DNA of 64,000 nt from Elusimicrobia bacterium RIFOXYA2_FULL_47_53. GTDB lineage: Bacteria; Elusimicrobiota; Endomicrobiia; Endomicrobiales; XYA2-FULL-47-53. Positions 7,801-21,055 of the stretch are shown in pieces. Below the pieces are notes generated by a model that searched no databases, had not been told where the DNA came from, and saw only the letters and a program-made list of their open reading frames with translations. The first letter of the stretch is position 1. The number at the start of each line of letters is the position of its first letter. The position numbers and the translations under genes were made by a program. The DNA lies in contig MGVE01000018.1 of NCBI GenBank assembly GCA_001800315.1, positions 1-64,000 of the forward strand. Direction: 5' to 3'.

Positions 7801-9759
7801 ATGAATGTAATAGAGCTCAAAAATATCACTAAAACCTACCATCTCGGGAAAATTGATGTTCCGGTTCTCCACGGGGTCTCGCTTAGCATAGCCGAGGGCG
7901 AATTTGTCGCAATTATGGGGCACTCCGGCAGCGGCAAATCCACGCTGTTAAACATTTTAGGGCTGTTGGATAAACCATCGGGCGGGGAGTACTCACTTGC
8001 CGGAAAAGAAGTTTCAAAACTTACCGATGACGAACTCGCCTCTTTGCGTAATAAGTTTATGGGGTTCGTCTTTCAGCAGTTTAACCTGCTCCCGCGCATG
8101 ACGGCAAAAGAGAATGTAGCTTTGCCCATGATTTATTCCGTTGGGAAAGAAAAATACTTAAACGAAACCGCTCTGCTTGAGAAAGTCGGCCTTGGCGGGC
8201 GCGTAATGCATAAGCCAAACGAGCTTTCCGGAGGCCAGCAGCAGCGCGTGGCCATAGCAAGAGCGCTCATCAATAACCCTCTTTTAATCCTTGCTGACGA
8301 GCCCACGGGGAACCTGGATTCAAAGTCCTCCGAGGAAATAATCTCAATATTAAAAAGCCTGAACGAAGCCGGCATAACTATCGTCATGGTCACCCACGAG
8401 CCTGACTTGACGGCGGCGGCCTCGCGGATTATCCGTGTGCAGGACGGGCTGATTGTATCCGACGAAATACGCGAAAAAAGAAAATCCGCGCACGACAGAA
8501 TCAAAGGTGCGAACGGCAGCATGCACCACAATGTCGCCAATGCCTCAAGGGTAAGAGATTATTTTATGCAGGCGCTGCGTTCGCTTGTTTCAAATAAAAC
8601 CCGTTCGGTGCTTTCCATTCTCGGAGTTTTGATTGGCGTTGCCAGCCTTATTGCCATGCTGGCGCTGGGGCGCGGCGCTCAGGAACAGGTTAAGAAAAAT
8701 ATTTCATCGCTCGGTTCCAATTTGCTCATGGTCAGGGCTTCTTCGCCATTCAGGGGCGGCGTTTCGCTTGAGACCGGATCCGCGACGCGTTTCACTATTC
8801 AGGACTCCAAAGAAGTCATGGAGAGGGTTCCCGGGGTTGATAAGGTCGTGGCTTATGTCTCTGGGCGGGGCCAGGTTACTTTCAGCGGCAGGAACTGGAA
8901 CACCCAGGTTCAGGGGACAACGGCTGATTACCCGGCGGTGCGTAATTCTGTTCCGCAGAAAGGCAGGTTTTTTACCCGGGAGGAAACAATAACCCGGGCG
9001 CGGGTCGCGGTTCTCGGAAAAACCGTGGTTGACAATCTGTTCGCGGATCAGGATCCCATAGGGCAATACATTAAAATTAAAAGAGTGGATTTTCAGGTCA
9101 TAGGGGTTCTGCCGGAAAAGGGAGCGCGCGGCTTCCAGAATGACGACGATAAAATTATTATCCCTCTGAATACCGCTATGTACCGCCTGCTGGGAAAAGA
9201 ATACATTGACAGTATGGATGTGCAGGTTTCGCAGAGCGATAAGATGGACGATGTTTCCGATGCCATAAAAAAACTTATCACGCGGACGCACCGTTTGCCT
9301 GCTTCGCGGACAGACCTGATAGATATTCGCAATATGGCCGATATTCAGGAAACCATTTCTTCAACCATGAAAGCCTTTTCGTATCTCTTAGGTTCAATAG
9401 CGTTTATCAGCCTGCTTGTAGGCGGCATAGGAATTATGAACATTATGCTGGTTTCGGTTTCCGAACGCACCAGAGAGATTGGGCTCAGGAAAGCCATCGG
9501 CGCCAACGACAAAGACATTCTGTTCCAGTTTGTCATAGAATCCGTAGTGGTCTGCGCCATAGGCGGCATTATGGGAATAGCCGTCGGTTCGCTTATTTCG
9601 GTGGGCTTCGCGAAATTCGCGGGCTGGTCAACGGTGATAGCGTTCTATTCTGTGGCCATGGCGTTCACTTTCTCAGTGCTGATAGGCCTTGTTTTCGGGA
9701 TATGGCCCGCGAGGAAGGCCTCGCAGTTAAACCCTATTGACGCGCTTCGTTACGAATAA
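7801..9759 (+). CDS. macB: MacB-type ABC transporter, fused ATPase and permease
   Basis: 652 residues. The N-terminal ATPase (1 to about 230) has Walker A GHSGSGKST, signature LSGGQQQR, Walker B LLILADEPTGNLD and H-loop VTHE. TM1 lies near 270-290, then a periplasmic MacB core domain, then three C-terminal TM segments (about 525-640, including SLLVGGIGIMNIMLVSVSERTREIGLRKAIG, a FtsX/MacB hallmark region). These mechanotransmission pumps drive export through TolC. With the adaptor and TolC genes upstream it completes a tripartite exporter; substrate unknown. The repeat tract before it may uncouple its transcription. Confidence 0.94.
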   Translation: MNVIELKNITKTYHLGKIDVPVLHGVSLSIAEGEFVAIMGHSGSGKSTLLNILGLLDKPSGGEYSLAGKEVSKLTDDELASLRNKFMGFVFQQFNLLPRMTAKENVALPMIYSVGKEKYLNETALLEKVGLGGRVMHKPNELSGGQQQRVAIARALINNPLLILADEPTGNLDSKSSEEIISILKSLNEAGITIVMVTHEPDLTAAASRIIRVQDGLIVSDEIREKRKSAHDRIKGANGSMHHNVANASRVRDYFMQALRSLVSNKTRSVLSILGVLIGVASLIAMLALGRGAQEQVKKNISSLGSNLLMVRASSPFRGGVSLETGSATRFTIQDSKEVMERVPGVDKVVAYVSGRGQVTFSGRNWNTQVQGTTADYPAVRNSVPQKGRFFTREETITRARVAVLGKTVVDNLFADQDPIGQYIKIKRVDFQVIGVLPEKGARGFQNDDDKIIIPLNTAMYRLLGKEYIDSMDVQVSQSDKMDDVSDAIKKLITRTHRLPASRTDLIDIRNMADIQETISSTMKAFSYLLGSIAFISLLVGGIGIMNIMLVSVSERTREIGLRKAIGANDKDILFQFVIESVVVCAIGGIMGIAVGSLISVGFAKFAGWSTVIAFYSVAMAFTFSVLIGLVFGIWPARKASQLNPIDALRYE

Positions 9760-13845: not shown

Positions 13846-14042
13846 AAAAATATCTGAATACGCTTTTCATTACAACTCAGGGCGCCTATCTCAAAAAGGA
13901 AGGCGAGACTATTGTTGTAAGCGTTGACAAAGAATAAAAGCTATGGGTTCCTGTTCATACGGTGGGTGTATTCGGGAATGATTTAGGGAAGGTTTCTAAA
14001 CTCGCACTGGGTAAGAGTAATGAATATGGAGATGAAAAATGA
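13842..14042 (+). pseudogene. 5' remnant of a cas1 gene (I-C-like), interrupted by a stop
   Basis: Reads [31 protein letters not shown], then TAA (13935-13937), then in the same frame KLWVPVHTVGVFGND and loses similarity. The two pieces match the N-terminus of Cas1 from type I-C and related systems (KxLNTLYVTTxGAYLxxxGExVVV, then VPxHTxxGxVxFG). Only about 45 of some 340 residues remain. The frame ends at a TGA (14040-14042) that overlaps the cas12b ATG. This is not the Cas1 of the present locus, which is a Cas4-Cas1 fusion. It looks like the scar of an earlier CRISPR system. Confidence 0.75.
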
Positions 14043-17000
14043 ATCGTATTTATCAGGGCAGGGTGACGAAGGTTGAGGTGCCGGACGGTAAAGATGAAAA
14101 GGGCAACATAAAATGGAAAAAACTTGAGAACTGGTCAGATATCCTTTGGCAGCATCACATGCTTTTCCAGGATGCGGTGAATTATTACACGCTGGCACTT
14201 GCTGCTATATCAGGATCTGCAGTAGGTAGCGATGAAAAATCAATTATACTTCGCGAATGGGCTGTGCAGGTACAAAACATATGGGAAAAAGCAAAAAAGA
14301 AAGCAACGGTGTTTGAAGGGCCACAAAAAAGATTAACTTCAATACTTGGACTGGAGCAAAATGCATCGTTTGATATAGCTGCAAAGCATATATTGCGTAC
14401 GAGTGAAGCAAAACCGGAACAACGAGCATCTGCGCTTATTCGTCTATTGGAAGAGATAGATAAGAAAAACCATAATGTGGTCTGCGGTGAAAGGCTTCCT
14501 TTTTTCTGTCCGCGAAACATCCAAAGCAAGAGATCACCCACCAGCAAGGCAGTATCGTCAGTTCAAGAGCAAAAAAGGCAAGAAGAGGTAAGAAGATTTC
14601 ATAATATGCAGCCTGAAGAAGTAGTAAAAAATGCAGTTACACTTGATATTAGTTTGTTTAAATCTTCTCCCAAAATAGTTTTTTTAGAAGACCCAAAGAA
14701 GGCGCGGGCGGAATTACTTAAACAATTTGATAATGCATGCAAAAAGCATAAAGAGTTAGTTGGGATTAAAAAGGCATTTACGGAATCAATTGATAAGCAC
14801 GGAAGTAGTCTTAAAGTCCCCGCGCCAGGTAGTAAGCCCAGTGGGCTATATCCTTCCGCTATAGTTTTTAAGTATTTTCCTGTAGACATAACCAAAACTG
14901 TATTTTTGAAAGCAACAGAAAAATTGGCCATGGGTAAAGATAGGGAAGTTACAAATGATCCTATAGCCGATGCGCGCGTAAATGATAAGCCGCATTTTGA
15001 TTATTTTACCAACATTGCATTAATTCGCGAAAAAGAAAAAAATCGCGCCGCATGGTTTGAGTTTGATTTAGCAGCTTTTATTGAGGCCATAATGTCGCCT
15101 CATAGGTTTTATCAAGACACGCAAAAGCGTAAAGAGGCGGCAAGGAAGTTAGAAGAAAAGATAAAAGCCATTGAAGGAAAAGGCGGACAATTTAAAGAAT
15201 CGGATAGTGAAGATGATGATGTGGATAGTCTGCCTGGGTTTGAGGGTGATACCCGTATTGATTTGCTGAGAAAACTGGTTACAGATACACTTGGATGGCT
15301 TGGAGAGTCAGAGACACCAGATAACAACGAAGGTAAAAAGACGGAGTATTCAATAAGCGAAAGAACCCTGCGCATATTTCCCGATATACAGAAACAGTGG
15401 TCAGAGCTCGCTGAAAAAGGAGAGACGACAGAAGGAAAATTACTGGAAGTGCTTAAACACGAGCAAACAGAGCATCAGAGTGATTTCGGCAGTGCAACGC
15501 TTTATCAGCACTTGGCCAAGCCGGAGTTTCATCCGATTTGGCTTAAAAGTGGAACCGAAGAATGGCATGCAGAAAACCCGCTTAAGGCATGGCTTAACTA
15601 CAAGGAACTACAATATGAGCTGACTGATAAAAAGCGTCCTATACATTTTACTCCAGCTCATCCGGTATATTCCCCCAGATATTTTGATTTTCCCAAAAAG
15701 TCAGAAACAGAAGAAAAAGAAGTCTCTAAAAATACACATTCACTAACAACGAGCCTTGCATCAGAACATATTAAAAACTCATTACAGTTTACAGCAGGAT
15801 TGATACGCAAAACCAATGTTGGCAAAAAAGCTATAAAAGCGCGATTCTCATACTCTGCACCTCGCCTTCGGCGTGATTGTTTGCGTTCTGAAAACAACGA
15901 GAATCTATACAAGGCTCCATGGTTGCAACCAATGATGCGGGCATTGGGTATTGATGAAGAGAAAGCAGACAGACAAAACTTTGCCAATACCCGTATTACT
16001 CTAATGGCTAAGGGATTGGATGACATACAACTTGGCTTTCCCGTGGAAGCGAATTCGCAAGAATTGCAAAAAGAGGTGTCTAATGGTATTAGCTGGAAAG
16101 GGCAGTTTAATTGGGGTGGAATTGCTTCTCTTTCTGCTTTGCGTTGGCCTCATGAAAAAAAGCCAAAGAATCCGCCAGAACAACCATGGTGGGGCATAGA
16201 CAGCTTTTCATGCCTTGCGGTTGATTTGGGGCAGCGTTATGCCGGAGCATTTGCCAGACTGGATGTGTCAACTATTGAAAAGAAGGGGAAATCACGCTTC
16301 ATCGGTGAGGCATGCGACAAGAAGTGGTATGCGAAGGTGTCGCGTATGGGGCTTTTACGCCTACCCGGTGAAGATGTAAAGGTGTGGCGCGATGCATCAA
16401 AAATAGATAAAGAAAATGGCTTTGCGTTTCGTAAAGAACTTTTTGGCGAAAAAGGCAGATCTGCCACACCTTTGGAAGCAGAAGAAACAGCAGAGCTTAT
16501 TAAGCTATTCGGTGCAAATGAAAAAGATGTAATGCCTGATAACTGGAGTAAAGAACTCTCGTTTCCGGAACAGAACGACAAGCTTTTAATAGTAGCGCGG
16601 CGTGCGCAGGCAGCAGTATCAAGGCTTCATCGTTGGGCGTGGTTTTTTGATGAAGCTAAGCGTTCCGATGACGCTATCAGGGAGATTTTAGAAAGCGATG
16701 ATACGGATTTGAAACAAAAAGTAAATAAGAATGAAATTGAGAAAGTTAAGGAAACTATAATAAGCCTATTGAAAGTAAAACAGGAGCTATTGCCTACTTT
16801 GTTAACCAGGCTTGCAAACCGAGTGTTGCCTCTTCGTGGTAGAAGCTGGGAGTGGAAAAAACATCACCAAAAAAACGATGGTTTTATTCTGGATCAGACA
16901 GGCAAAGCTATGCCCAATGTATTAATTCGTGGCCAACGCGGGCTTTCTATGGATAGAATTGAGCAAATAACGGAATTGCGCAAGCGTTTTCAAGCGCTTA

Positions 17001-18133
17001 ACCAATCGTTACGCAGGCAGATAGGCAAAAAAGCGCCTGCCAAACGGGATGATTCAATACCCGACTGCTGCCCGGATTTGCTTGAAAAACTTGATCATAT
17101 GAAGGAACAACGGGTAAACCAGACCGCACATATGATTTTGGCCGAAGCGCTTGGGTTGAAGCTTGCAGAACCGCCAAAGGATAAGAAAGAGCTTAATGAA
17201 ACCTGCGATATGCACGGGGCATATGCAAAGGTTGATAATCCGGTAAGTTTCATTGTGATAGAAGATCTTTCAAGATATCGTTCTTCGCAGGGGCGTTCTC
17301 CAAGAGAAAATAGCCGTCTGATGAAATGGTGTCATCGTGCGGTTAGGGACAAGCTAAAGGAGATGTGTGAAGTATTTTTCCCTTTGTGCGAAAGAAGAAA
17401 AGCAGGTAGCGCCTGGGTATCGTTGCCGCCGCTACTTGAAACGCCAGCGGCTTACTCATCGCGCTTTTGTTCGCGCAGCGGTGTTGCCGGCTTCCGTGCA
17501 GTAGAAGTGATTCCGGGATTTGAATTAAAGTACCCTTGGTCTTGGTTAAAAGACAAAAAAGATAAAGCCGGAAATCTCGCCAAAGAAGCTTTAAATATTC
17601 GTACTGTAAGTGAACAGCTTAAAGCGTTCAATCAGGATAAGCCTGAAAAGCCACGCACATTATTAGTGCCTATTGCAGGTGGCCCTATTTTTGTGCCTAT
17701 TTCAGAGGTTGGGTTGTCATCTTTCGGTTTGAAACCGCAGGTAGTGCAGGCAGATATTAATGCGGCTATTAATTTAGGATTAAGAGCAATCTCTGATCCG
17801 CGGATATGGGAAATACATCCCCGCTTGAGAACCGAAAAACGAGACGGACGGCTTTTTGCGCGAGAAAAGAGAAAATACGGAGAAGAGAAAGTGGAAGTAC
17901 AGCCTTCAAAGAACGAAAAAGCAAAGAAAGTTAAAGATGATCGCAAGCCTAATTACTTTGCTGATTTTTCCGGTAAAGTTGATTGGGGTTTTGGAAATAT
18001 AAAAAATGAAAGTGGTCTCACTTTGGTTTCAGGCAAGGCTTTGTGGTGGACTATCAATCAATTACAGTGGGAAAGATGCTTTGACATTAATAAAAGGCAC
18101 ATTGAAGATTGGTCTAATAAACAAAAACAATGA
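14039..18133 (+). CDS. cas12b: Type V-B CRISPR effector Cas12b (C2c1), large variant
   Basis: RNA-guided DNA endonuclease of 1364 residues; characterised Cas12b proteins are about 1100-1200. RuvC motifs are seen as LAVDLGQRYAGAFARLD (D729), FIVIEDLSRYRSS (E1075) and VVQADINAAINLGLRA (D1239). Flanking signatures match known Cas12b: RENSRLMKWCHRAVRDKL after RuvC-II, and AAYSSRFCSRSGVAGFRA with GGPIFVPISE before RuvC-III. There is no HNH domain or Cas12a-type repeat. The N-terminus (MNRIYQGRVTKVEV) fits the wedge/OBD start. A strongly acidic insertion lies near residues 390-405 (SDSEDDDVDS). GGAG at 14028-14031 gives 7-base spacing to the ATG. Its stop overlaps the cas4-cas1 start as ATGA, so the two are coupled. 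AT-richer than the flanking core genes, consistent with transfer. All three catalytic residues are present, so it should be active. Confidence 0.95.
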   Translation: MNRIYQGRVTKVEVPDGKDEKGNIKWKKLENWSDILWQHHMLFQDAVNYYTLALAAISGSAVGSDEKSIILREWAVQVQNIWEKAKKKATVFEGPQKRLTSILGLEQNASFDIAAKHILRTSEAKPEQRASALIRLLEEIDKKNHNVVCGERLPFFCPRNIQSKRSPTSKAVSSVQEQKRQEEVRRFHNMQPEEVVKNAVTLDISLFKSSPKIVFLEDPKKARAELLKQFDNACKKHKELVGIKKAFTESIDKHGSSLKVPAPGSKPSGLYPSAIVFKYFPVDITKTVFLKATEKLAMGKDREVTNDPIADARVNDKPHFDYFTNIALIREKEKNRAAWFEFDLAAFIEAIMSPHRFYQDTQKRKEAARKLEEKIKAIEGKGGQFKESDSEDDDVDSLPGFEGDTRIDLLRKLVTDTLGWLGESETPDNNEGKKTEYSISERTLRIFPDIQKQWSELAEKGETTEGKLLEVLKHEQTEHQSDFGSATLYQHLAKPEFHPIWLKSGTEEWHAENPLKAWLNYKELQYELTDKKRPIHFTPAHPVYSPRYFDFPKKSETEEKEVSKNTHSLTTSLASEHIKNSLQFTAGLIRKTNVGKKAIKARFSYSAPRLRRDCLRSENNENLYKAPWLQPMMRALGIDEEKADRQNFANTRITLMAKGLDDIQLGFPVEANSQELQKEVSNGISWKGQFNWGGIASLSALRWPHEKKPKNPPEQPWWGIDSFSCLAVDLGQRYAGAFARLDVSTIEKKGKSRFIGEACDKKWYAKVSRMGLLRLPGEDVKVWRDASKIDKENGFAFRKELFGEKGRSATPLEAEETAELIKLFGANEKDVMPDNWSKELSFPEQNDKLLIVARRAQAAVSRLHRWAWFFDEAKRSDDAIREILESDDTDLKQKVNKNEIEKVKETIISLLKVKQELLPTLLTRLANRVLPLRGRSWEWKKHHQKNDGFILDQTGKAMPNVLIRGQRGLSMDRIEQITELRKRFQALNQSLRRQIGKKAPAKRDDSIPDCCPDLLEKLDHMKEQRVNQTAHMILAEALGLKLAEPPKDKKELNETCDMHGAYAKVDNPVSFIVIEDLSRYRSSQGRSPRENSRLMKWCHRAVRDKLKEMCEVFFPLCERRKAGSAWVSLPPLLETPAAYSSRFCSRSGVAGFRAVEVIPGFELKYPWSWLKDKKDKAGNLAKEALNIRTVSEQLKAFNQDKPEKPRTLLVPIAGGPIFVPISEVGLSSFGLKPQVVQADINAAINLGLRAISDPRIWEIHPRLRTEKRDGRLFAREKRKYGEEKVEVQPSKNEKAKKVKDDRKPNYFADFSGKVDWGFGNIKNESGLTLVSGKALWWTINQLQWERCFDINKRHIEDWSNKQKQ

Positions 18134-19827
18134 TGGACTCTCTTGTCCGCACAGAAAATTCAATGGCACCTCAGCCCATGATGGGTGTCCGCAATCTGCA
18201 CAACTACATCTACTGCCCGCGGTTGTTCTATTATCAGTGGGTGGAGAATATCTTCCAGGAAAACGCGGATACTGTGGAAGGTTCTTACATTCACCGCAAT
18301 GTTGACCGTCCATCCCGTCTTGATGACCTTAATGAAATTGATCTCCCGGAAGGTTCGGCAATAAAATCCCTTCGCCTGGATAGCGAAACTCTCGGTATTG
18401 TGGGTGTGATTGATATTGTTGAGGGCGGACCCGAAGGGGCCGTTCTTATTGATTACAAGAAAGGTTCATCTCGTCGTGATGAGAAAGGCGAGAGGATGGC
18501 GAAGGAGCCTGACGCAATGCAGGTGGTAGCGCAGGCCATGCTTTTGGCGGAACATGGAATTGCTGTTAAAGAGGCATTTATATACTATGCCGCAGACAAG
18601 CGGCGCGTCCCGGTAGATATATCGAGCGGCTGTGTTGATGTTTGTCGTGAGAAAATTGCCGAAGCAAAGGCAATAGCTGTCTGTGGTAAGTGCCCGCCGC
18701 CCTTGATAAATGATGCGAGGTGTCTGTATTGTTCGGTATATCCAATATGCTTACCCGCAGAGTCGGAATATTGGAAAAACCACGGAGATGAGGCTTGTGA
18801 AGTCAAGAGAGCTCCACGGCCGGATAATGACGACGGAGAAGTTCTCATTGTGCAGACGCCGGGAGCTCAAATTGGGCTGAAAGGCGGGGAAGTCGTTGTG
18901 TCCGTTAAGGGCGAAGAGATACGCAAACTTCCCGCGCATCAGTTGAGAGCAGTTTACCTATATGGTGCTGTTCAGGTAACTGCGCATGCTTCGCATAGCT
19001 TTTTGGAGCAAGGAACTGATGTCTCGTTCTTTGCGCCCTCCGGTCGTTTCTTAGGGTTATTGAGAGGCCTGCCTACATCGGGAACAGACGCACGCCGAGG
19101 TCAGTATCGTCTTTTTGATCAACCGGAGATATGTCTTAAAATAGCTCGTGAAATGATTCGTGCGAAGATTCACAATCAACGGACAATGCTTATGCGTAAT
19201 GGTGAACCGGACAAAAATGTGCTTGATCAAATGCTGAAGTTGCGAGATAAAACGGTGGAAGCTGAAGAGCTTACTAAATTACTCGGTCTTGAAGGAATGG
19301 CGGCGGCGCTATATTTTGAGAACTTCAAGTGCATGTTGAAACCGAAGGATGATTATTCTTTTGACTTTTCGTCTCGCAATAGGCGGCCTCCGAAAGATCC
19401 CGTAAACGCACTTCTTTCCATGGGCTATAGCATGTTGTGTAAGGAATTGACTGGAGTATGTCATACGGCCGGACTTGACCCATTTATAGGAGTTATGCAC
19501 CGCCCTCATTACGGTCGTCCGGCATTAGCGTTAGATATTATGGAAGAATTTCGTCCTTTAATCGCAGATAGCGTTGCCATAAGTCTTATTAATCGCGGCG
19601 AAGTAGTCAAGAGCGATTTTCTCGTCAGCGCGGCAGGTGTATTCCTGAATGAGCAGGGACGCAGAGCTTTCTGGGAGGCCTATAGCCGCAGGATGGATAC
19701 CGAGATCATACATCCACAATTTGAATATAAAATGCCTTACCGGAGAATGCTGGAGGTTCAAGCTCGCCAAATGTGGCGGTTTGTAAGAGGCGAGGCGGTT
19801 GGATACACAGGTTTTACAACGAGGTAG
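18130..19827 (+). CDS. cas4-cas1: Cas4-Cas1 fusion, CRISPR adaptation protein
   Basis: 565 residues. The Cas4 part (1 to about 215) has the N-terminal iron-sulfur cysteine C29 (YCPRLFYY), RecB nuclease residues D95 (VIDIV) and D108-x-K110 (IDYKKG), and the C-terminal cysteine cluster RCLYCSVYPIC. The Cas1 part (about 235-565) has integrase residues E388 (GLEGMAA), H457 (GVMHRPHYGRP) and D469/E472 (LALDIMEEF). Cas4 selects PAM-bearing prespacers; Cas1 with Cas2 inserts them. This fusion is known from types V-B and I-G; with Cas12b beside it the V-B assignment holds. ATGA overlap with cas12b. The partner Cas2 is broken. Confidence 0.95.
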   Translation: MMDSLVRTENSMAPQPMMGVRNLHNYIYCPRLFYYQWVENIFQENADTVEGSYIHRNVDRPSRLDDLNEIDLPEGSAIKSLRLDSETLGIVGVIDIVEGGPEGAVLIDYKKGSSRRDEKGERMAKEPDAMQVVAQAMLLAEHGIAVKEAFIYYAADKRRVPVDISSGCVDVCREKIAEAKAIAVCGKCPPPLINDARCLYCSVYPICLPAESEYWKNHGDEACEVKRAPRPDNDDGEVLIVQTPGAQIGLKGGEVVVSVKGEEIRKLPAHQLRAVYLYGAVQVTAHASHSFLEQGTDVSFFAPSGRFLGLLRGLPTSGTDARRGQYRLFDQPEICLKIAREMIRAKIHNQRTMLMRNGEPDKNVLDQMLKLRDKTVEAEELTKLLGLEGMAAALYFENFKCMLKPKDDYSFDFSSRNRRPPKDPVNALLSMGYSMLCKELTGVCHTAGLDPFIGVMHRPHYGRPALALDIMEEFRPLIADSVAISLINRGEVVKSDFLVSAAGVFLNEQGRRAFWEAYSRRMDTEIIHPQFEYKMPYRRMLEVQARQMWRFVRGEAVGYTGFTTR

Positions 19828-19828
19828 T

Positions 19829-20119
19829 ATGAGCAGAACCAGGTTTCTTGTTTGTTATGATATCTCTAATCCTAAGCGATTAAGGCGTATTGCAAAAACA
19901 CTGGAGGGGTACGGGAGTCGCCTACAATTTTCTGTATTTGAATGTCCGCTGGATAAACAAAGGCTTGCAGAAGTGAAAGCGAGGCTTGCAGATATTTTGA
20001 GTCATGATTAGGATCAGGTATTGTTTGTAGAACTCGGGAAAGAGGCATCGGAATCCGGTTTAATTATTGAAGCAATGGGCCTGCCATATGTCGGAAGAAC
20101 ACGCTTGACAATCGTTTAA
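19829..20119 (+). pseudogene. cas2: cas2 interrupted by an in-frame TAG
   Basis: Starts one base after cas4-cas1 (MSRTRFLVCYDISNPKRLRRIAK, with the ferredoxin-fold beta1 and aspartate D10). Residues 1-60 end in ILSHD, then TAG (20009-20011). The same frame continues DQVLFVELGKEASESG...PYVGRTRLTIV to a TAA at 20117-20119. The full reading frame of 96 codons is the normal Cas2 length, so a single base change (for example GAG or CAG to TAG) broke it. The truncated protein would lack the last strands that bind Cas1. TAG ends intact genes here (typA, cas4-cas1), so recoding is unlikely. Adaptation is probably lost or needs another Cas2. Confidence 0.88.
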
Positions 20120-20133
20120 AATTTGAGTAGCAT
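20105..20133 (+). promoter_or_regulatory. Promoter for the tracrRNA
   Basis: TTGACA (20105-20110), a 17-base spacer and TAGCAT (20128-20133). The -35 overlaps the last codons of the broken cas2 frame. Transcription would start near 20140, just before the anti-repeat region. Confidence 0.6.
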
Positions 20134-20137
20134 CTAA

Positions 20138-20250
20138 AATGCCTACGGGCAACGAACACAATCCTTCCGCCATTGGGATTGCAGGCTCTTTGGAATTACA
20201 TGCGGAGCGAGCGCGATAATGAAGCATTTGCTTATCATAAGCGCTCGGTT
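20138..20250 (+). ncRNA. tracrRNA of the type V-B system
   Basis: Three segments pair with the CRISPR repeat in order. CCGCC (20167-20171) pairs with the repeat's 3' GGCGG. CAGGCT (20182-20187) pairs with AGCTTG, including one wobble. GGAATTACATGCGGAG (20192-20207) pairs with CTCCGCAGTGATTCC with one G-U and one bulged A. The first segment lies in the loop of a stem CAATCC/GGATTG (20159-20164 with 20176-20181). This is the plan of the Alicyclobacillus Cas12b tracrRNA, whose CAACGGG/CCCGTTG stem encloses its first anti-repeat. A stem CGAGCGC/GCGCTCG (20208-20214 with 20241-20247) follows and may form the 3' end. Strand inferred from the promoter and from this order. Confidence 0.72.
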
Positions 20251-20382
20251 TACACAATTAGCTGCAATTGCAGAGAATTATTGTGGTGAGAGTACTATGA
20301 CAAAATTTGTGGTTTTGGTTTTGAGGTTATGCTCGCAAAGTGCGGAAAAGCACCTTATAAACCGTGTGTTTTATAAAGCGCT
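20251..20382 (+). other. Probable CRISPR leader
   Basis: 132 bases between the tracrRNA hairpin and the first repeat, with no coding frame. It contains the palindrome CTGCAATTGCAG (20262-20273), a small hairpin GTGC-GGAAAA-GCAC (about 20340-20353) and the inverted pair TTATAAA/TTTATAA directly before repeat 1. No clear -35/-10 pair is visible for the array itself. Confidence 0.45.
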
Positions 20383-21055
20383 ATTAACTCCGCAGTGATT
20401 CCTATCAGCTTGAGGCGGAACAAAAGCATTTTCCCCTACTCCAGAACAAGAGGCATTAACTCCGCAGTGATTCCTATCAGCTTGAGGCGGTTGAGTATGT
20501 CAATAATAGTGAATTGCCCCCTGATATTAACTCCGCAGTGATTCCTATCAGCTTGAGGCGGTTTTACGCCTTCCGCGTCCTTACCGTCATCTTTGATTAA
20601 CTCCGCAGTGATTCCTATCAGCTTGAGGCGGTTATCTTATCTACTAAAAGAAACTTTAATTAACTTATTAACTCCGCAGTGATTCCTATCAGCTTGAGGC
20701 GGAGCGAAGCTCAAGCTAAAAGACTATATGCCATTTATTAACTCCGCAGTGATTCCTATCAGCTTGAGGCGGCGAATGCGGAAAATTCAAGTTTAATCCC
20801 GACAAATTAACTCCGCAGTGATTCCTATCAGCTTGAGGCGGTCTATATCAATCCTCTCTAATATCTCTTTATCGTGATTAACTCCGCAGTGATTCCTATC
20901 AGCTTGAGGCGGTTCGCCCAATAAAGTTATTTCCAATGTTGATGCTTGATTAACTCCGCAGTGATTCCTATCAGCTTGAGGCGGATCGTTGAGCAGTTCA
21001 CAAAGGTCAGGCCATGAGCATTAACTCCGCAGTGATTCCTATCAGCTTGAGGCGG
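20383..21055 (+). CRISPR. CRISPR array, 10 repeats of 36 nt, 9 spacers
   Basis: The repeat begins ATTAACTCCGCAGTG and ends ATCAGCTTGAGGCGG; all ten copies look identical. Repeat starts: 20383, 20455, 20526, 20596, 20667, 20737, 20806, 20877, 20949, 21020. Spacers are 33-36 nt. The repeat can fold through CCGC/GCGG and TGAT/ATCA. No spacer matches any other part of the window by eye. There is no degenerate end repeat, so the age polarity cannot be read from the repeats. Orientation (+) follows the tracrRNA pairing. Confidence 0.98.

What the first reader, a model, noticed from the sequence alone, without database searches (positions are those of the whole stretch)
20138..20250. tracrRNA readable from sequence: three-part anti-repeat inside a conserved V-B fold
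CCGCC, CAGGCT and GGAATTACATGCGGAG pair in order with the repeat from its 3' end to its 5' end, covering about 26 of 36 bases. The first part lies in the loop of a CAATCC/GGATTG stem. The Alicyclobacillus Cas12b tracrRNA has the same plan (a CAACGGG/CCCGTTG stem enclosing the first anti-repeat, the second directly after). Here the inner hairpin present in Alicyclobacillus is missing, so this would be a compact tracrRNA.
Basis: partly seen in the sequence, partly recalled or inferred. Interest (0 to 1): 0.75.

Follow-up and report, generated by a model that had tools for sequence, protein, structure and literature searches.

The report
Compact Cas12b tracrRNA, confirmed by covariation
The stretch is the helper RNA (tracrRNA) of an ordinary type V-B (Cas12b) CRISPR system in an Elusimicrobiota-like bacterium; it has a shortened guide-RNA fold that a whole branch of Cas12b systems shares, which is useful to know but does not surprise.

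Summary
On the + strand, 20139-20207 carries a three-part anti-repeat (CCGCC 20167-20171, CAGGCT 20182-20187, GGAATTACATGCGGAG 20192-20207). It pairs with 26 of the 36 bases of the CRISPR repeat 176 bases downstream. The first part sits in the loop of a CAATCC/GGATTG stem. A covariance model built without any Elusimicrobiota sequence finds it at E about 2e-15. Across 32 aligned tracrRNAs the stem is paired in 98.9% of cells, with two-sided changes at all six pairs. Anti-repeats pair far better with their own repeat than with others (sum -986 versus -668, sd 26, kcal/mol). A promoter-like TTGACA-17-TAGCAT ends 7 bases upstream.

The neighbours are a full-length Cas12b, a Cas4-Cas1 fusion, a cas2 with an in-frame TAG, and a 10-repeat array.

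The compact form, without the inner hairpin, is not special to this locus. Every member examined of a large Cas12b branch with repeats ending in GGCGG has it; all six tracrRNAs examined in the Alicyclobacillus-like branch (repeats ending in CAC) keep the inner hairpin. Part of this branch has probably been tested before (EbCas12b, Strecker 2019; its origin is from memory). Filed as a new member of a known kind. By-products: a conserved 3' hairpin, a position-locked leader motif, a single-guide-like RNA in L020.

The parts
14039..18133 (+). cas12b, 1364 aa, RuvC residues D729, E1075 and D1239 present
   Evidence: NCBIfam NF033949 Cas12b equivalog, 1085.9 bits; PADLOC Cas12b E 6.7e-245; invariant columns. 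The assignment of the three residues as catalytic is by alignment to known Cas12b motifs
18130..19827 (+). cas4-cas1 fusion, 565 aa
   Evidence: Pfam Cas_Cas4 and Cas_Cas1; NCBIfam cas4g_cas1g, 623.6 bits
19829..20119 (+). cas2 with an in-frame TAG at 20009-20011 (codon 61 of 96)
   Evidence: Pfam Cas2 across one TAG stop; the reading frame is open at this codon in L013 and L014
20105..20133 (+). sigma-70-like promoter TTGACA-17-TAGCAT, predicted start near 20140; overlaps the end of cas2
   Evidence: consensus scan, 10 of 12 matches; similar boxes at the same place in L013 and L014 by eye
20140..20151 (+). 5' hairpin TGCC-TACG-GGCA of the tracrRNA
   Evidence: paired in 77% of cells, two-sided changes at all four pairs
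20159..20181 (+). stem CAATCC/GGATTG (20159-20164 with 20176-20181) with the near-constant loop TTCCGCCATTG
   Evidence: 98.9% of cells paired, two-sided changes at 6 of 6 pairs
20167..20171 (+). anti-repeat part 1, CCGCC, pairs with the repeat's 3' end GGCGG
   Evidence: sequence; changes to CCGTC in L020, whose repeat ends GACGG
20182..20187 (+). anti-repeat part 2, CAGGCT, pairs with AGCTTG
20192..20207 (+). anti-repeat part 3, GGAATTACATGCGGAG, pairs with CTCCGCAGTGATTCC
20208..20247 (+). 3' hairpin CGAGCGC.../...GCGCTCG
   Evidence: z -2.8; motif pair in 19 of 37 loci versus 0.05 expected, in both Cas12b branches
20328..20336 (+). leader motif containing CTCGCA, 51 bases before the first repeat
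   Evidence: same position in most relatives with this repeat type
20383..21055 (+). CRISPR array, 10 identical 36-base repeats

Best explanation
This is the tracrRNA gene of a type V-B CRISPR-Cas12b locus. It is transcribed on the + strand from a promoter inside the end of cas2. Its three anti-repeat parts pair with the repeat of the crRNA precursor. [quoted passage not shown] The dual RNA then guides Cas12b to DNA. The form is compact because this branch of Cas12b lacks the hairpin that the Alicyclobacillus-type RNA carries inside that loop. Shown here: the sequence, the pairing, the covariation, the distribution over the Cas12b tree and the locus context. Inferred: transcription, processing, binding by Cas12b and interference.
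For: Leave-out covariance model E 2.3e-15. Covariation score 0.637 versus 0.200 shuffled (0/500), and at most 0.169 when slid. G-U pairs in the stem on the + strand would be C-A mismatches on the other strand. Cognate repeat pairing sum -986 versus -668, sd 26, best of 10000 permutations -796. Compensatory GGCGG/CCGCC to GACGG/CCGTC in L020. Promoter-like site at the right distance. Same gene order in relatives. Complete Cas12b.
Against: No transcript data. cas2 carries an in-frame stop, so the locus may be losing adaptation. Cells in the pair counts are related sequences, not independent events. Most relatives were located by the CCGCC motif, so the constancy of the loop is partly selected; L020 (CCGTC), L040 and L060 came from looser pattern or model searches.
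Confidence: 0.96

Rival explanations
1. A decayed locus: the tracrRNA and array are relics of a V-B system that no longer works.
For: In-frame TAG in the only cas2 of the genome; a degraded cas1 fragment just upstream of cas12b.
Against: Cas12b and Cas4-Cas1 are full length with the RuvC motifs; ten identical repeats; 26 of 36 repeat bases still paired; promoter-like site present. Loss of cas2 would stop spacer uptake, not interference.
Confidence: 0.1
2. A free-standing regulatory RNA or a stray inverted repeat rather than a tracrRNA.
For: Transcription and binding are not shown.
Against: Cognate co-variation with the repeat over 29 loci and a fixed place between cas2 and array; matches no Rfam family.
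Confidence: 0.02
3. Chance complementarity.
For: Repeat and anti-repeat parts are short.
Against: 0 of 300 shuffles; leave-out model E 2.3e-15.
Confidence: 0.005

Closest known systems
Type V-B tracrRNA of Alicyclobacillus (tested on A. dauci L016 and A. suci L066)
   Same: 5' hairpin, stem enclosing anti-repeat 1, anti-repeat 2 directly after the stem, anti-repeat 3, 3' CGAGCGC hairpin, place between cas2 and array
   Different: Alicyclobacillus has an inner hairpin after anti-repeat 1 and repeats ending GGCAC; here the loop is 11 bases without it and repeats end GGCGG
EbCas12b (Strecker et al. 2019, PMC6342934)
   Same: V-B system whose tracrRNA was mapped by small RNA-Seq in E. coli and whose PAM is T-rich. 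From memory, 'Eb' stands for an Elusimicrobia bacterium; if so it may be this very locus or a near relative
   Different: Could not be compared: the sequence is in supplements that are not available here
Fifteen Cas12b orthologues of the NiCas12b paper (PMC11423069)
   Same: Three stem-loops, with a bulge of the second stem able to pair with the repeat's 3' end
   Different: 13 of those 15 repeats end in CAC; the window's ends in GGCGG

Membership tests
Type V-B CRISPR-Cas locus | Effector is Cas12b by curated model | tested here: met
   NF033949 1085.9 bits against cut-off 150
Type V-B CRISPR-Cas locus | RuvC catalytic motifs present | tested here: met
   VDLGxR, IED and ADINAA motifs aligned with relatives and A. 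dauci
Type V-B CRISPR-Cas locus | Cas4-Cas1 fusion and cas2 next to the effector | tested here: met
   cas2 has an in-frame stop
Type V-B tracrRNA | Anti-repeat complementary to the cognate repeat, near the array | tested here: met
Type V-B tracrRNA | First anti-repeat enclosed by a conserved stem | tested here: met
Alicyclobacillus-type V-B tracrRNA (sub-type, not required for V-B) | Inner hairpin after the first anti-repeat | tested here: not met
   11-base loop; absent in every GGCGG-type member aligned
Type V-B tracrRNA | Transcribed and required for Cas12b cleavage | not testable with these tools
   no RNA or activity data

The most novel reading that the evidence does not exclude
Cas12b guide RNAs fall into two architectures that track two deep Cas12b branches: one with and one without the inner hairpin, with repeat ends CAC and GGCGG. 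Both keep a conserved 3' CGAG/CTCG hairpin beyond the anti-repeat that is not an ordinary terminator and has its own role, for example in processing or Cas12b binding.
Probability: 0.35. Interest if true: 0.5.

Novelty: new member of a known kind. Interest (0 to 1): 0.35.

Why it matters
It gives a directly usable guide-RNA design for a large, little-studied Cas12b branch. It also shows from natural sequences which parts of the V-B scaffold are dispensable (the inner hairpin) and which are nearly fixed (the TTCCGCCATTG loop, the 5' hairpin and the anti-repeat order).

Tried and rejected
Rfam scan: only a sub-threshold GlmZ match overlapping the end of the array, taken as chance. The first genome-contig scan with the single protein found nothing; the alignment query worked. 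Viral-contig and phage searches gave no Cas12b relative to use. The anti-repeat search in CAC-type loci first returned only the antisense array and was redone with masking; L071 gave no clear tracrRNA there and was not used. A second tracrRNA or single-guide RNA upstream of the window's cas12b: none found. A canonical terminator at the 3' hairpin: none found in the window. Shmakov 2015 is not held in the library.

Full report
Check of the observation. Parts 2 and 3 pair with the first 31 bases of the repeat at -32.4 kcal/mol, with 21 pairs, and CCGCC adds 5. This is the best site in the window outside the array on both strands. None of 300 dinucleotide shuffles of the intergenic stretch reaches it. 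The tracrRNA alone folds with the stem and the 5' hairpin formed.

Locus. The order is cas12b, cas4-cas1, cas2, tracrRNA, array, all on the + strand. Cas12b is complete and matches the NCBIfam Cas12b model along nearly its whole length. The RuvC motifs are invariant in the alignment. cas2 has an in-frame TAG at 20009-20011, and it is the only cas2 in the genome. The neighbouring cas4-cas1 gene itself ends in TAG, so TAG is a stop here. Adaptation may therefore be lost or reduced while interference stays possible (inference). A broken cas1 start lies at 13863-13967.

Relatives. Two other genomes of the same phylum carry the locus at 46% and 60% Cas12b identity, and the same contigs appear under Elusimicrobiota titles. 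An alignment-based scan brought 56 loci from many phyla. Those most like the window have 36-base repeats ending in GGCGG. Alicyclobacillus, Brevibacillus, Bacillus V3-13 and others have repeats ending in CAC. Nearly every GGCGG locus with an array has, between cas2 and array, the same RNA: 5' hairpin, CCACCGACC, six-pair stem around TTCCGCCATTG, anti-repeats 2 and 3.

Covariation. On 32 sequences the named structure is paired in 90.8% of cells against 67.3% shuffled. All ten pairs have two-sided changes. The covariation score is 0.637 against 0.200 shuffled (0 of 500) and at most 0.169 for slid versions. The main stem is paired in 98.9% of cells. Relatives share history, so the shuffles overstate significance; the slide control keeps relatedness and still separates clearly. 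G-U cells in the stem fit the + strand only. A model built from 26 non-Elusimicrobiota sequences finds the window (E 2.3e-15), L014 and L013, and has no comparable match in CAC-type loci. Anti-repeats prefer their own repeats: the summed energy is -986 against a permutation mean of -668, sd 26, best of 10000 permutations -796. The own repeat ranks first in only 11 of 29 loci, because some foreign repeats are more GC-rich or closely related, so it is the total that carries the argument. In L020 the repeat ends GACGG and the tracrRNA loop reads CCGTC.

Compactness. Six CAC-type tracrRNAs (L016, L066, L063, L065, L067, L070) were read by eye. In folding, four show an inner hairpin after the first anti-repeat in the minimum-energy structure, and L070 shows it in the centroid. 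In L066 the predicted minimum uses part of the anti-repeat in that hairpin. The GGCGG-type sequences have an 11-base loop with no room for one. On a FastTree of Cas12b the two types are two sides of one fully supported branch. That tree is a quick one with long branches, and some rows without a located array or tracrRNA (L019, L022, L064, L068, L069, L072 among them) were labelled by assumption, so the split is firm only for the typed rows. The compact form is thus a branch-wide trait of this Cas12b group. Whether the hairpin was lost here or gained in the other branch cannot be said, since the root is not known.

Ends of the RNA. A TTGACA-17-TAGCAT site ends at 20133, which predicts a start near 20140. 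Beyond anti-repeat 3 all three Elusimicrobiota loci and most others have a hairpin with CGAG(C/T)GC and its complement. A strict form of this motif pair is found in 19 of 37 loci against 0.05 expected. In CAC-type loci it reads CGAGCGC/GCGCTCG, CGAGCAC/GTGCTCG and CGAGTAC/GTACTCG, with compensatory change. Most lack a T-run, so a plain intrinsic terminator is not obvious.

What is known. V-B tracrRNAs with a stem whose bulge pairs with the repeat's 3' end are described (PMC11423069). Strecker et al. mapped tracrRNAs of V-B systems, EbCas12b among those with interference (PMC6342934). From memory, Eb is an Elusimicrobia bacterium, so the window could be that locus or close to it; I could not check. 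I found no open paper that describes the GGCGG-type compact scaffold as a class, but the library is partial.

Verdict. Correct and well supported, mechanistically ordinary: a new member of a known kind, with a clade-level refinement of V-B guide architecture.

Noticed in passing
L020 972-1103 (upstream of cas12b at 1552): A second tracrRNA-like sequence (57.8 bits with model R2) runs into a single repeat end TTTGAGGCGG, so it looks like a natural single-guide RNA. The bases after it (TTAAATCCT) match 9 of 9 on the - strand at 1233, before the first ORF of the operon; about 1% of shuffles do as well. It recalls Cas9 tracr-L autorepression and may be a Cas12b counterpart.
   Followed up: partly
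L053 8847-8916 (upstream of cas12b at 9001): A weaker single-guide-like candidate: TCGCC in a stem loop, CTTAT/ATAAG hairpin, then TGAGGCGA (R2 18.1 bits). No convincing seed target nearby.
   Followed up: partly
window 20328-20336 and leaders of relatives: CTCGC[AG] sits 49-54 bases (74 in L042, whose array start is unsure) before the first repeat in 24 of 33 V-B loci, all 24 of GGCGG type (1.3 expected). It looks like a leader anchor for spacer integration.
   Followed up: partly
window 20009-20011: In-frame TAG in the only cas2 gene of the genome.
   Followed up: partly
window 13863-13967: Remnant of a cas1 start just upstream of cas12b, 20 bits, with a TAA inside.
   Followed up: no
L050 15351-15597; L062 2864-3009; L041 5550-5687: Tandem or duplicated tracrRNA copies before the array.
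   Followed up: no
L051 392-477: A tracrRNA-like stem loop lies upstream of cas12b next to an inverted repeat end (CCGCCTCAAATGATTGTG), so this locus may have its tracrRNA and array upstream.
   Followed up: no
L005, L006: Distant Cas12b-like proteins of about 1450-1495 aa in other genomes of the phylum, similar in size to the solved chain 9kln of 1496 aa that is the window protein's best PDB match.
   Followed up: no
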